Source of the DNA: Candidatus Nanoarchaeia archaeon | GTDB lineage: Archaea; Nanobdellota; Nanobdellia; Woesearchaeales; UBA525 | Length of the DNA stretch: 64,000 nucleotides | Assembly (NCBI GenBank): GCA_028279755.1 | Contig: JANQNB010000011.1 | Span: 192,501 to 256,500 of the forward strand | Direction of reading: 5' to 3' | Part shown: one piece after another, positions 1,650 through 43,593 of the stretch | How the letters are laid out: each line of letters starts with the position of its first letter | How positions within the stretch are numbered: the stretch's first letter is position 1 | Notes under the pieces: model-generated | Databases searched by the model: none | What the model saw: the letters and a program-made list of their open reading frames with translations, nothing else | Told to the model about the DNA's origin: nothing | Made by a program: the position numbers and the translations under genes

Positions 1650-1753
1650 CGCTGCCGTCCTGAGATGAATGCAGCGCCGAGTATGAGCGCAGCTCATGAT
1701 TGCGAGGCGCTGATAAAAGCGCGACCAGAGGGAGCGTGAAGGCGACGGCAGCG
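1650..1753 (-). ncRNA. Structured RNA element family B, copy 1 (3' of HIT gene)
   Basis: This 104-nt element begins immediately after the stop codon of the HIT gene, in the same sense. An outer 10-bp stem (CGCTGCCGTC/GACGGCAGCG) encloses a conserved single-stranded core containing ACGCTCCCTCTGGTCGCGC. Inside it are a 7-bp stem (CAGCGCC/GGCGCTG) and a terminal ATGAGC-TGC-GCTCAT hairpin. Copy 2 (41472-41572) shares the core and architecture but differs in both stems by compensatory pairs, which supports selection on RNA structure. It could be a 3'-UTR element, a processed sRNA or a terminator-associated structure. Confidence 0.65.
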
Positions 1754-4521: not shown

Positions 4522-6222
4522 ATGGATCTCTCACCAGAAGCATTGGCACGCACACTCGCATTGCAGAACGCGGTACGGCACAAAGGCACGGCGAATCCGA
4601 AAGCGCTGGTCGGCGGCATGCTCGGCGCGCATCCGGAATTCAAGGAACGCATGCCAGAGCTCGGCGAACTGCTCGAGCGAGTGGTCGCGGAAATCAACGA
4701 CCTGTCGCCTGAAGAGCAGGAAGCAGCGCTCCGGGAAGAACGCCCGGACTTCGACAAGGTGGAGAAGAAAGAAGACCTGAAAGAACTAGAGAATGTCGAG
4801 GGCAAGGTCGTGATGCGCTTCGAACCAAGCCCAAGCGGCCCATTGCACATCGGGCATGCCTATCCCTTCAGTCTCAATCTAGAGTACGCAAAAAAGTACA
4901 AAGGAAACTGCATTCTCCGCATCGGGGATACCAACCCGGAGAACATCAGCGAGGACGCGTACGAACTCATCCCTGAGGACGCGTGCTGGCTGGCAGAATG
5001 CAATGTCGATGTTGTCGTCCAGAGCGACCGTCTCGACCTCTACTATGGCTACGCGCTCAAGCTCATCGAGGAAGAGCACGCCTATGTCTGCGAGTGCGAG
5101 GCTGAGGAATTCAAGAAGATGCGAGATAAGGGGCTTGTCTGTCCCTGTCGCGAACTCGCAGGGAATGAGCATGCTGAACGTTGGCGAAAGATGAACAGCG
5201 CACCGCCAGACGGCTACGAGCAAGGCGCTGCAGTCGTCCGTTTCAAGACAGACATCGCGCATAAGAATCCGGCGATGCGCGACTTCCCACTCCTGCGCAT
5301 CAACGAAGAGGAGCACCCACGACAAGGAAAGAAGTACCGGGTCTGGCCATTGATGAACTTCAGCGTCGCGATCGACGACCTGGACATGGGCGTGACCCAC
5401 ACGCTTCGTGGCAAGGACCATGCTGACAACGCGAAAAAACAGGCCTTCATCCACGACGCGCTCAAGCACACGACGCCGACCGCGATCAGCGTCGGGCGCA
5501 TCAACTTCGACGGCTTCCCGGTCAGCTGCAGCGCGACACGGCCGCGCATCGAGAACGGCGAGTTCACTGGCTGGGACGATCCGCGCATCCCCTTCCTGCC
5601 AGCCATGCGAAGACGCGGCTACCACCCCGCGGCTTTGCGAAAGTACGCTGTGGAAGTTGGTGTGACGCGCAACGACAAGAGCGTGCACATCGACGAATTC
5701 TTCAAGCACATCAACGCCTTGAACAAAGAAGAACTCGATCCGGTGGCGCACCGGTACTTCTTCATCCCCGACCCGGTCGAGATCACAGTCGAGAACGCGC
5801 CAGCGCAAGAGCTCGAGCTTGACCTGCACCCAGACAATACGAAAGGCGGCAGGAAGTTCGCAAGCAAGAACGAATTCTTCATCAGCGGTGACGATTTCGA
5901 GAAGATACAAAGCATGAGCAAGGTCCGGCTCATGGAATGCATGACGCTCAACGTGAACGATAAGAAATTCTCGTTCGACAGGAAAGACTACAAGAAAGAA
6001 GAGACTGACACGATCATCCACTGGCTGCCGGCAGAAAACCATACCGCCAGGCTCGTCAAGGTGCAAGTGCTCATGCCCGACGGGAGCGAGAAGCACGGCC
6101 TCGGCGAACTCGGCATCGCTGATCTCGAGCCTGACGCCGTCGTGCAGCTCGAACGTTTCGGATTCTGCCGGTACGACCGGACAGAAGGAAGCATCCATGT
6201 CTTCTATTTCGCGCATCGCTGA
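4522..6222 (+). CDS. gltX: Glutamyl-tRNA synthetase, archaeal type
   Basis: This enzyme charges tRNA-Glu (566 aa, normal archaeal length with the usual helical N-terminal extension of about 95 residues). The class I HIGH motif is intact (PLHIGHA, 108-114). A zinc-site-like CxC...CPC pair is at 190-209, and the DLDMGVTHTLRGKDH segment is typical of archaeal GluRS/GlnRS. The second signature is abnormal: where archaeal enzymes have a KMSKS-like STSK-I-R, this protein reads SCSATR (335-340), with alanine at the conserved lysine. The C-terminal beta-barrel tRNA-binding region is present. Confidence 0.93.
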   Translation: MDLSPEALARTLALQNAVRHKGTANPKALVGGMLGAHPEFKERMPELGELLERVVAEINDLSPEEQEAALREERPDFDKVEKKEDLKELENVEGKVVMRFEPSPSGPLHIGHAYPFSLNLEYAKKYKGNCILRIGDTNPENISEDAYELIPEDACWLAECNVDVVVQSDRLDLYYGYALKLIEEEHAYVCECEAEEFKKMRDKGLVCPCRELAGNEHAERWRKMNSAPPDGYEQGAAVVRFKTDIAHKNPAMRDFPLLRINEEEHPRQGKKYRVWPLMNFSVAIDDLDMGVTHTLRGKDHADNAKKQAFIHDALKHTTPTAISVGRINFDGFPVSCSATRPRIENGEFTGWDDPRIPFLPAMRRRGYHPAALRKYAVEVGVTRNDKSVHIDEFFKHINALNKEELDPVAHRYFFIPDPVEITVENAPAQELELDLHPDNTKGGRKFASKNEFFISGDDFEKIQSMSKVRLMECMTLNVNDKKFSFDRKDYKKEETDTIIHWLPAENHTARLVKVQVLMPDGSEKHGLGELGIADLEPDAVVQLERFGFCRYDRTEGSIHVFYFAHR

Positions 6223-40710: not shown

Positions 40711-40814
40711 CAGCCTTGCTGCCTTGGCGCGGCATACGAAGTCACAGAAACGTTCCGTTTCTGGGATGCCAGGAAGCTTCGCTTCCTGAGCATGAGAGCG
40801 CCGCAGCAAGGCTG
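40711..40814. ncRNA. Structured RNA element family A, copy 2 (long form)
   Basis: The outer stem is 11 bp (CAGCCTTGCTG/CAGCAAGGCTG). The core CCTTGGCGCGGCATACGAAGT and GAGAGCGCCG is identical to copy 1. Where copy 1 has a short loop, this one carries two extra hairpins: CAGAAACG-TTC-CGTTTCTG (40745-40763) and CAGGAAGC-TTC-GCTTCCTG (40770-40788). It lies between divergent genes, so it is not simply a 3'-UTR terminator. It could be a free-standing RNA. Confidence 0.6.
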
Positions 40815-40901: not shown

Positions 40902-41462
40902 ATGAATATCGGCGATACGATACCGGATATGGAATTGGAAGCATACTACAACGATAAGACTGTGAAGATCAAGCTGGGTGAGTGCAGGGGCAAGTGGACT
41001 GTGCTGCTCTTCTATCCTGCTGACTTCACCTTCGTCTGTCCGACGGAGCTGACAGAGGCGGCGCATCTCTACGATGAGTTCAAGAAGGAAGGCGCTGAGA
41101 TCATGTCTGTCTCGACCGATACTGTGTTCGTCCATAAGGCCTGGCACGACCACAGCCCAACGATCAAGGACATCAAGTATCCGATGTTGGCAGACCCGAC
41201 TGGCGAGCTGTGCCGCGCGCTCGGCACGTACATCGAGAAGGAAGGCTTGAGTCTTCGAGGGACATTCATCTTTGATCCTGACTGCAAGCTCGTCGCGATG
41301 GACATCCATGACAACAGCATCGGCAGGAACGCCCATGAGATCCTGCGCAAGGTGCAGGCTGCGAAGTTCACACACGACAATCCAGGACAAGTCTGCCCAG
41401 CATCATGGAAGCCCGGCGGCAAGACGCTCAAGCCCGGCATGGACCTTGTCGGGAAGCTCTAG
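40902..41462 (+). CDS. Peroxiredoxin (AhpC/Prx1 type, 2-Cys)
   Basis: It reduces hydrogen peroxide and organic peroxides in the cytoplasm (186 aa). The peroxidatic cysteine is C46 in YPADFTFVCPTE. The resolving cysteine is C165 in GQVCPASWKPGG. It is normal AhpC length. No AhpF-type reductase is nearby, so the electron donor is unknown. The stop is followed 9 nt later by structured element B2 in the same sense. Confidence 0.95.
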   Translation: MNIGDTIPDMELEAYYNDKTVKIKLGECRGKWTVLLFYPADFTFVCPTELTEAAHLYDEFKKEGAEIMSVSTDTVFVHKAWHDHSPTIKDIKYPMLADPTGELCRALGTYIEKEGLSLRGTFIFDPDCKLVAMDIHDNSIGRNAHEILRKVQAAKFTHDNPGQVCPASWKPGGKTLKPGMDLVGKL

Positions 41463-41471
41463 CCAAACAGT

Positions 41472-41572
41472 GCCACTGTCGCTCCTACGCTCCCTCTGGT
41501 CGCGCAAGTATCGATGCCTCACATAATGAGCTACGCTCATATTCGGCATCGCCTTTAACTCAGGACAGTGGC
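41472..41572 (+). ncRNA. Structured RNA element family B, copy 2 (3' of peroxiredoxin)
   Basis: The outer stem is GCCACTGTC/GACAGTGGC and the inner stem is CGATGCC/GGCATCG. The terminal hairpin is ATGAGC-TAC-GCTCAT. The core ACGCTCCCTCTGGTCGCGC and the segment CTCAGGAC are identical to copy 1. Relative to copy 1, three pairs in the outer stem and three in the inner stem have changed on both sides. It is in the sense orientation just after a stop codon, as in copy 1. Confidence 0.65.
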
Positions 41573-41634
41573 GCCAACAAACATTTTTTATACTTCTTCG
41601 TTTTTTTCCTCTACAATAGTGATTGGGTGGTAGT

Positions 41635-42009
41635 GTGGAACGTGGCCAAGTCTACAAGTGCACCGGAAGCGGTGTCGTCATCGAAGTTCTCGATCAGGGT
41701 CAGCTGGAAAAACCGTGCACAGAGCAGGATATGCGTCCCTTGCTCGAACGCACTGCAGCTGAGGAAGGGAAGGAGAAGCACGTCCCTGTCGTTGAGCAGA
41801 CCAGCGAGGGCATCCATGTGAAAGTCGGGAGCGTGCCCCACCCGATGGAGCCTGATCATTGGATCAAATGGATCGAGCTGCGGACAAGCGATAAGTGCTA
41901 TCGCCACTGGCTCAAGCCTGGCGAGCAGCCAGAGACGACATTTCCGCTGGTCGAGGGTGAGTTCGCGATCCGCGAGCATTGCAACAAGCACGGCCTGTGG
42001 AAGGCGTAG
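41635..42009 (+). CDS. Superoxide reductase (desulfoferrodoxin-like, degenerate centre I)
   Basis: It reduces superoxide to peroxide without making oxygen (124 aa). The iron centre II ligands are intact: KHVPVVE, VPHPMEPDHWI and EHCNKHGLW (His and Cys). The N-terminal desulforedoxin domain, normally with four Cys, keeps only VYKCTGSG and a PCTE fragment, so centre I iron is probably lost. GTG 41635 is taken as the start because GGGTGG lies just upstream; an in-frame TTG at 41623 is less likely. Confidence 0.88.
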   Translation: MERGQVYKCTGSGVVIEVLDQGQLEKPCTEQDMRPLLERTAAEEGKEKHVPVVEQTSEGIHVKVGSVPHPMEPDHWIKWIELRTSDKCYRHWLKPGEQPETTFPLVEGEFAIREHCNKHGLWKA

Positions 42010-42116
42010 TGCATATTTCTGACGTTCAGCACCCTTCAACAATAGCTTTATATATGTGAATATCATTTCACGTTTCAACAAATTCTCAGACGAGAATCAA
42101 GCACGAGGTGACCTCT

Positions 42117-42725
42117 ATGGTACATGAATTGCCAGCATTAGGATACGATTACAACGCGCTCGAGCCCCACATCGATGCCAAGACGATGGAGATCCATCAC
42201 ACGAAGCACCACCAGGCATACATCGACAAGTTGAACGCCGCGCTCGAGAAGCACCCACAGCTACAAAGCAAGGCTGTCGAGGAACTGCTCGCAGACCTCA
42301 ACGCTGTTCCTGAAGACATCAGGAGTGCGGTTCGGAACCATGGTGGCGGGCATTGGAACCACAGCTTCTTCTGGCCTTTGCTCAAGAAAGGGGTTGAGGC
42401 AAAAGGCGCTGTGATTGACGCGATCGCCGAGAAATGGGAAAGCTTTGAGAAGTTCCAGGAAGAATTCTCCAACGCAGCCGCGCTTCGCTTCGGCTCTGGC
42501 TGGGCCTGGCTAGTTGTTGACGAAGACGGCTCGCTTGAGATCATCAGCACGCCGAACCAGGACACTCCTGTGAGCGACGGCAAGAAGCCAGTTCTCGGTC
42601 TCGATGTCTGGGAGCACGCGTACTATCTCACATACCAGAACAAGCGGCCAGCCTACATCGAAGCGTTTTTCAACGTGATCGACTGGGACAAGGTCAACGA
42701 GCATTATCAAAATGCCAAAGCATGA
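42117..42725 (+). CDS. sod: Superoxide dismutase, Fe/Mn type
   Basis: This 202-aa protein carries the metal ligands in [30 protein letters not shown] and [20 protein letters not shown] (Asp and His), with [10 protein letters not shown] between. Fe or Mn specificity cannot be settled by eye. ATG 42117 follows GAGGTGACC. It overlaps the next gene by 14 nt. Having SOD and superoxide reductase side by side is uncommon. Confidence 0.96.
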
Positions 42726-43101
42726 TCTGAAAGAAGTGAAGAAAGACAAGAGCTTCTGGTCAGCCATCGGCCTGAGCGCGTTCGTCGCGAGCTTCTGCTG
42801 CCTGACACCAATCGTCCTGGTGCTCTTCGGCCTGAGCAGTGTCGCGTTCGCGTCCTCGCTCGGCCTCACCTTGTACGGCGAATGGAAATGGGCGTTCCGT
42901 GGCGTCGGCCTGTTGCTGCTCGCTGCATCCATGTTCTTTTACTTCCGCAGCAAGGGCATCTGCACCCTCGATCAAGCCAGGAAACGAAGGAACGAGATTA
43001 TCAACAAGGTATTGATCGCGCTCATCGCAGCGATCATCGCATACGTGATCTTCTTGTATGTCATCCTTCATTATATCGGCGTATGGATGGACATATGGTA
43101 A
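42712..43101 (+). CDS. MerT-like membrane protein
   Basis: This 129-aa protein has about four hydrophobic segments. The first contains a vicinal Cys pair, [19 protein letters not shown] (about 22-40), the hallmark of MerT-type mercuric transporters. A further cysteine in [14 protein letters not shown] fits the loop cysteines of that family. No MerA or MerP is nearby, so mercury transport is not established. Another thiol or redox-linked role is possible. It is coupled to the SOD gene by overlap. Confidence 0.6.
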
Positions 43102-43116
43102 TGCAGAGGTGAAATC

Positions 43117-43593
43117 ATGGCTATTACTATCGGTAAAAAAGCTCCGGCATTCACATTGCCAGACCACGATGGAAAAAAGGTCTCATTGAAAGATCTGAAA
43201 GGCAAATGGATCGTGCTGTACTTCTACCCGAAAGACAACACGCCTGGCTGCACAGTCGAAGGCATCGAGTTCACAGCAAAGAAGAAGGAATTCGAAAAGC
43301 ACAACGCTGTCGTGTACGGCATCTCCGGTGACAGCGCAGACAGCCATTGCAAATTCATCAAGAAACACAAGCTCGGCATTCCCCTGCTGACCGACGTTGA
43401 CAAGAAGATGATGGAAAACTACGACGCGTTCAAAGAGAAATCCATGTATGGCCGCACCTTCCTTGGCATCGTCCGCTCCACAGTGCTCGTTGATTCACAC
43501 GGCAAAATCGCGCATCACTGGCCAAAAGTCAAGGCCAGGGGGCACGCAGATGAAGTGCTCGCTACCGTAGAACGACTGGTCACGCGACCGTAG
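43117..43593 (+). CDS. bcp: Thiol peroxidase, Bcp/PrxQ family
   Basis: It reduces peroxides (158 aa). The peroxidatic cysteine is C45 in FYPKDNTPGCTVEGIEF. The usual +5 resolving cysteine is absent, so it would work as a 1-Cys or atypical enzyme, possibly using the cysteine in DSHCKFIKKH. GRTFLGIVRSTVLVDSHGKI completes the thioredoxin fold. GAGGTGAAATC precedes the ATG. Confidence 0.94.
   Translation: MAITIGKKAPAFTLPDHDGKKVSLKDLKGKWIVLYFYPKDNTPGCTVEGIEFTAKKKEFEKHNAVVYGISGDSADSHCKFIKKHKLGIPLLTDVDKKMMENYDAFKEKSMYGRTFLGIVRSTVLVDSHGKIAHHWPKVKARGHADEVLATVERLVTRP

What the first reader, a model, noticed from the sequence alone, without database searches (positions are those of the whole stretch)
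40711..40814. Long form of family A carries two inserted TTC-loop hairpins
In this copy the distal loop is replaced by two hairpins, each with an 8-bp stem and a TTC loop (40745-40763, 40770-40788). Peripheral expansion with core retention is a pattern of structured ncRNAs. The element lies between divergent promoters, so it cannot be explained as a 3'-UTR terminator.
Basis: partly seen in the sequence, partly recalled or inferred. Interest (0 to 1): 0.7.

Follow-up and report, generated by a model that had tools for sequence, protein, structure and literature searches.

The report
Modular palindromic repeat with swappable core
The element is one copy of a short, folded, scattered DNA repeat found only in one family of Woesearchaeota (an uncultured archaeal group); its inner part is swapped or enlarged by other small hairpins while its outer stem is nearly perfect and almost always different at each place, so it looks more like a mobile palindromic repeat than an ordinary functional RNA.

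Summary
Window 40711-40814 is a perfect 12-bp inverted repeat enclosing a conserved core plus a 51-nt insert with two 8-bp hairpins, each with a TTC loop. It is one of at least 31 copies of a family (FA) in this Woesearchaeota genome. The long form occurs at three loci, each with its own outer stem (degraded in one). A sister family (FB; two copies in this window, 143 model hits in four genomes of the genus) has the same base: a locus-specific stem P1, a CTT bulge, then GG/CC. Every helix covaries, but not like RNA. P1 has as many A·C as G·T mismatches (12:11), against 2:19 in tRNAs of the same genomes. Copies lie in divergent, tandem and convergent spacers. Small hairpins nest inside each other. 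At eight sites shared by two close relatives, seven cores resemble another copy in the same genome more than the true ortholog, while P1 and flanks tend to persist. Best reading: a lineage-specific family of modular, mobile or converting palindromic DNA elements, like REPINs or yeast mitochondrial GC clusters but without their conserved stem or (in this genome) a RAYT gene. The structured-ncRNA reading is weakened, not excluded. No mobilising enzyme was found.

The parts
40711..40722 (+). P1 left arm of FA element (CAGCCTTGCTGC), specific to this locus apart from one different-core copy (C9:14097) with nearly the same arm
   Evidence: Perfect 12-bp inverted repeat; other FA copies have other, equally self-complementary arms; C9 copy read
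40723..40725 (+). CTT bulge, conserved base of the superfamily (P1-CTT-GG...CC-P1')
   Evidence: Conserved in FA alignment A2 and in most FB copies; palindromes flanking CTTGG: 23 against 0-2 for 29 permuted pentamers
40726..40730 (+). P2 5' strand GGCGC
   Evidence: Covaries: GGCGC/GCGCC, GGCCC/GGGCC, GGGCC/GGCCC
40731..40742 (+). Conserved FA loop GGCATACGAAGT, including the mini-hairpin RC-GNA-GY (AC-GAA-GT)
   Evidence: R-Y pair covaries A-T 9 / G-C 9
40743..40793 (+). 51-nt insert that makes the long form; absent from short copies such as 17019-17067
   Evidence: Alignment with the other two long copies, C23:52227-52316 and C7:733-826
40745..40763 (+). Insert hairpin 1, 8-bp stem, TTC loop
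   Evidence: Sequence; C7:733 copy carries a compensated change (C-G to T-A at its base) and a two-base insertion that extends the stem
40770..40788 (+). Insert hairpin 2, 8-bp stem, TTC loop (GAA on the other strand: GC-GAA-GC)
   Evidence: Sequence
40794..40802 (+). Conserved GAGA plus P2 3' strand GCGCC
40803..40814 (+). P1 right arm GCAGCAAGGCTG
17019..17067 (+). Short-form FA copy in the same window, P1 TTTGCGCCGC/GCGGCGCAAA
41472..41572 (-). Sister-family (FB) copy 3' of the peroxiredoxin gene, P1 GCCACTGTC/GACAGTGGC
   Evidence: FB model R1 103.7 bits
1650..1753 (+). Sister-family (FB) copy, P1 CGCTGCCGTC/GACGGCAGCG
   Evidence: FB model R1 107.3 bits

Best explanation
The element is a copy of a lineage-specific family of short, modular palindromic DNA repeats that spread and change at the DNA level. 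SHOWN: nearly every unit has a basal stem P1 (usually 9-16 bp, nearly perfect Watson-Crick, different at almost every locus), a conserved CTT bulge and a GG/CC clamp, then an interchangeable core (FA short, FA long, FB and others). Cores carry or lose further small hairpins and can nest in one another. The long form here is an FA core with a 51-nt double hairpin, found at three loci in three different stems. Cores at shared sites of sister species mostly resemble paralogs more than orthologs while P1 and flanks tend to stay. INFERRED: the unit folds as a single-stranded DNA hairpin or cruciform, for example at replication forks. The core is copied from place to place by conversion or insertion. 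Perfect basal arms are produced or restored by template switching between the arms (arm homogenisation) or by fold-back synthesis when the core joins a new site. It has no demonstrated function for the host and probably behaves as a tolerated intergenic repeat.
For: Copy number 31 FA and 21 FB hits in one genome, FB 13/64/45 in three sister species, none detected outside the family among 58 relatives; FA pattern 0 in 350 further genomes of the order. Near-identical cores with different arms; composite A(B) elements keep their inner stem GGTTTTGCCA while each of four loci has a different outer stem. Near-perfect Watson-Crick P1: 295/300 (FA) and 734/773 (FB), G·T 11 against A·C 12, tRNA control 19:2, Fisher p 0.003. 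FA inside FB at C22:2354-2495. A 42-nt hairpin insert present in G002 and absent at the orthologous G003 site, flanked by an ATGG repeat; related inserts occur inside G000 FA copies. Core closer to a paralog than to the ortholog at 7 of 8 sites. CTTGG permutation control. Placement in divergent, tandem and convergent spacers (heuristic). Arm homogenisation by template switching is a documented process (PMC8604942; PMC7202029).
Against: No mobilising enzyme identified; Y1 transposase and RVT_1 are absent from this genome. No clean empty target site was found: at two sites where a G002 copy is missing in G003, another hairpin occupies the spacer. P1 sequences share a common trend (YRCYR next to CTT; GCATCATCG-like stems in G002/G003), so part of P1 is inherited rather than target-derived. 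Some compensated changes exist between orthologous P1s, which selection on structure would also give. Core subtypes evolve fast, so paralog similarity could partly reflect subtype sharing. Mismatch counts are small and the tRNA control is only 14 genes with rough stem extraction.
Confidence: 0.6

Rival explanations
1. A structured non-coding RNA (trans-acting or cis-regulatory) family present in many copies per genome; P1 changes by compensatory mutation because the RNA fold is selected.
For: All helices covary (72 double-change cells against 21.6 in shuffles; 324 against 98); conserved unpaired motifs; FB in the same peroxiredoxin 3' spacer in G000 and G002, same orientation; slight G·T excess in the FB inner helices P3 and P4 (19 against 8).
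Against: P1 shows no wobble asymmetry; copies sit in all gene arrangements including divergent spacers; cores swap and nest; no Rfam match at gathering threshold.
Confidence: 0.22
2. A REP/REPIN- or MITE-type element moved in trans by a transposase (for example a Y1/RAYT or another transposase) that recognises the CTT-bulged single-stranded hairpin.
For: Intergenic short palindromes with bulges and GNA triloops resemble substrates of single-strand transposases (established knowledge of REP/IS200 systems); Y1_Tnp matches exist in G002 and G003.
Against: No Y1_Tnp in G000, where FA expanded; no conserved terminal GTAG/CGTC tag; no conserved terminal repeats, since the arms differ per locus; G002 and G003 hits are partial or interrupted by a stop.
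Confidence: 0.13
3. Transcription terminator or mRNA-stabilising hairpin used by many genes.
For: Stable hairpins; many copies lie close to gene ends.
Against: The element in question lies between divergent genes; archaeal termination does not need hairpins (established knowledge); placement is not restricted to 3' ends.
Confidence: 0.05

Closest known systems
REP/REPIN elements (GTAG- and CGTC-tagged palindromes; PMC3733652, PMC3116915)
   Same: Short intergenic palindromes, tens of copies, lineage-restricted, compensated stem variants, clustered or dimeric organisation
   Different: No terminal GTAG/CGTC foot, no RAYT in the genome, basal stem differs at almost every locus, much larger modular cores (31 to about 150 nt)
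Mobile GC clusters / double-hairpin elements of fungal mitochondria (PMC4478555)
   Same: Small palindromic units that proliferate, merge and shuffle, stand-alone and merged forms at the same homologous site, mobilising enzyme unknown
   Different: Archaeal chromosome, conserved CTT-bulge base and strong covariation of all helices, locus-specific near-perfect basal stem
MITEs
   Same: Non-coding, dispersed, inverted-repeat ends
   Different: No common terminal inverted repeat, no parent transposon found, no clear target-site duplication at FA/FB
Structured RNA motif families found by comparative genomics (PMC2864571)
   Same: Covarying multi-helix structure with peripheral expansion
   Different: No RNA-type wobble in P1, no fixed gene context, core exchange at the DNA level

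Membership tests
REP/REPIN (RAYT-associated) | Terminal GTAG or CGTC tag next to the palindrome | tested here: not met
   Conserved base is CTTGG; the GTAG seen in some copies is the variable GNA loop (GAA, GTA, GCA)
REP/REPIN (RAYT-associated) | RAYT/Y1 transposase gene in the genome | tested here: not met
   PF01797 none in G000 (93.7% complete); partial or interrupted hits in G002 and G003 only
REP/REPIN (RAYT-associated) | Many short dispersed intergenic palindromes | tested here: met
MITE | Common terminal inverted repeats shared by copies | tested here: not met
   P1 arms differ at nearly every locus
MITE | Target-site duplication | tested here: inconclusive
   No clean empty site for FA/FB; the nested 42-nt insert is flanked by ATGG in G002
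Structured ncRNA | Covariation of helices beyond chance | tested here: met
Structured ncRNA | G-U wobble tolerated on one strand, A-C avoided | tested here: not met
   P1 G·T 11, A·C 12; tRNA control 19:2. This holds for P1 only: the inner helices P3+P4 give 19:8
Structured ncRNA | Expressed transcript | not testable with these tools
   No expression data
Known Rfam family | Score above gathering threshold | tested here: not met
   Window scan found tRNAs only

The most novel reading that the evidence does not exclude
A new class of self-propagating single-stranded-DNA hairpin elements that, on joining a new site, fold back at the CTT bulge and copy the adjacent target strand, so that each insertion writes its own perfect locus-specific inverted repeat; cores then act as exchangeable cassettes.
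Probability: 0.2. Interest if true: 0.85.

Novelty: new variant of a known kind. Interest (0 to 1): 0.55.

Why it matters
It shows that strong covariation and 'peripheral expansion with core retention', usually taken as marks of functional RNA, can appear in a family whose behaviour (locus-specific near-perfect stems without wobble asymmetry, nesting, core exchange) points to DNA-level dynamics. It adds a modular palindromic repeat family in DPANN archaea with a nested-module architecture for which I found no published description in the held literature, and it gives a natural system to test how short palindromes spread and stay perfect without a known transposase.

Tried and rejected
Rfam search: tRNAs only. 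Insertion into pre-existing palindromes was considered and rejected: fewer than one 9-bp perfect palindrome with a YRCYR centre is expected by chance in 1.5 Mb (my estimate), against about 30 occupied ones. P1 made purely from target sequence was considered and only partly kept, because P1s share a trend and some pairs share stems. RAYT/IS200 and reverse transcriptase as mobilisers: neither found in G000. Viral contigs: no exact match. Generic hairpin enrichment in the window: none (65 observed, 55-64 in controls), so only these families stand out. Nucleotide search of the peroxiredoxin locus in the genus found about 75% coding identity and an unalignable spacer between G000 and its relatives; G002 and G003, about 80-90% identical at shared loci, were used instead.

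Full report
OBSERVATION. The sequence at 40711-40814 is as described: arms CAGCCTTGCTGC / GCAGCAAGGCTG are perfectly complementary, and the two inner hairpins have 8-bp stems and TTC loops at the stated coordinates. Folding is significantly stable as RNA (z -6.2) and as DNA on both strands (z -6.8 and -6.1). Relative to the short form at 17019-17067, a 51-nt segment (40743-40793) is inserted into the loop; the loop itself is kept.

A DISPERSED FAMILY. The core CCTTGGCGCGRCATACGAAGTGAGAGCGCCG is repeated across the genome: 31 hits are reported by covariance model R2. The pattern with up to 2 mismatches hits 24 times in this genome (control 0), once in sister species G003, and in none of 350 other genomes of the order. 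The only exact match in the 84,980-species collection is a Candidatus Woesearchaeota contig that is the same G003 locus (records of the window's own genome may be left out there), and there is none in viral contigs. The long form occurs three times: here, C23:52227-52316 and C7:733-826, each with a different outer stem, degraded to 4 bp in the C23 copy. In the C7 copy, hairpin 1 has changed with compensation, so the inserted hairpins are real structures.

ANATOMY. P1 (locus-specific) - C - CTT bulge - P2 (GGNNC/GNNCC, covarying) - conserved loop with a mini-hairpin RC-GNA-GY. In alignment A2, 99.3% of cells pair, 9 of 10 P1 pairs change on both sides, and no shuffle reaches the covariation score. 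The GNA triloop closed by C-G is known as an unusually stable DNA mini-hairpin, d(GCGAAGC); this rests on my own knowledge, and one search lists papers that use the term. A second family in the window (1650-1753 and 41472-41572) has the same base but a branched core; model R1 finds 21, 13, 64 and 45 copies in four species of the genus, 0 in the fifth, a few in the sister genus, and none in 49 other genomes of the order. Its helices covary very strongly. Palindromes that flank CTTGG number 23 in a set of relatives' loci, against 0-2 for each of 29 permuted pentamers.

RNA OR DNA? If selection acted on an RNA strand, G-U would be tolerated and A-C avoided. In P1 the counts are G·T 11 and A·C 12 among about 1,070 pairs (FA, FB), while tRNA stems from the same loci give 19 and 2 (Fisher p 0.003). 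The tRNA control is small (14 genes, simple stem extraction). The FB inner helices P3 and P4 lean weakly towards G·T (19:8), so an RNA role for the core is not excluded. The copy in question lies between divergent genes, and others lie in tandem and convergent spacers (from an ORF heuristic).

MODULARITY AND MOBILITY. Composite elements, in which one FA unit sits inside another, occur at four loci with the inner stem unchanged and the outer stem different at each. An FA unit sits inside the apical hairpin of an FB unit at C22:2354-2495. A 42-nt hairpin insert is present in G002 and absent at the orthologous G003 site, with ATGG on both sides, and related inserts occur inside G000 FA copies. 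G002 and G003 are close enough (about 80-90% nucleotide identity at shared loci) to compare sites. At 7 of 8 shared sites the core is closer to another copy in the same genome (0.72-0.96) than to its ortholog (0.42-0.74), whereas P1 is on average closer to the ortholog, clearly so at some sites and marginally at the others. In two cases a short core in one species corresponds to a long core in the other at the same site. At the peroxiredoxin-SOD spacer and the L137 site, G003 carries a different hairpin. A further copy with a different core, C9:14097, nearly shares the P1 of the window element.

MECHANISM. I favour DNA-level dynamics: hairpin or cruciform extrusion, core transfer by conversion or insertion, and template switching that makes or restores perfect arms. 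Arm homogenisation of short inverted repeats by template switching is documented (PMC8604942; PMC7202029, listed). P1 is partly inherited (YRCYR next to the bulge; GCATCATCG-like stems in G002 and G003) and partly specific to the site; whether it is written at insertion is not shown. Neither a Y1 transposase nor a reverse transcriptase was found in this genome.

COMPARISON. Closest are REP/REPIN palindromes (PMC3733652) and yeast mitochondrial GC clusters, which merge and shuffle at homologous sites (PMC4478555). The element is not a REP by the tag or RAYT test and not a classical MITE by the terminal-repeat test. A survey of REPs in bacteria and archaea does not mention Woesearchaeota or DPANN (PMC12306157), and a library search for Woesearchaeota with palindromic intergenic repeats returned nothing.

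VERDICT. A real and unusual feature with a partly wrong interpretation: a new variant of mobile palindromic repeats, interesting for its locus-specific near-perfect stem and exchangeable cores.

Noticed in passing
L089 (DAHXMN010000003.1) 5470-5830: In the sister species a copy is nested in a larger multi-armed palindrome (361 nt folded: RNA MFE -164 kcal/mol, z -5.9), ending near a run of T.
   Followed up: partly
C22:38333-38559 and C24:53749-53951 of the own genome: FB and FA copies lie next to each other in opposite orientation, about 13-36 bp apart.
   Followed up: no
window 40902-43593: Cluster of oxidative-stress genes (two peroxiredoxin-like ORFs and a superoxide dismutase-like ORF, named from the translations); the FA-long element and an FB element flank the first one.
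   Followed up: partly
C22:2354-2495 and C6:47823-47971 of the own genome: Two loci share about 79 bp at 90% identity around an FA unit, one short and one with the extra hairpin insert, so short and long forms exist in otherwise homologous surroundings.
   Followed up: partly
G002:C109:24077-24721 and G001:C114:13206-13850: RVT_1 domain hits in two sister species, absent from the window's genome; no link to the repeats tested.
   Followed up: no
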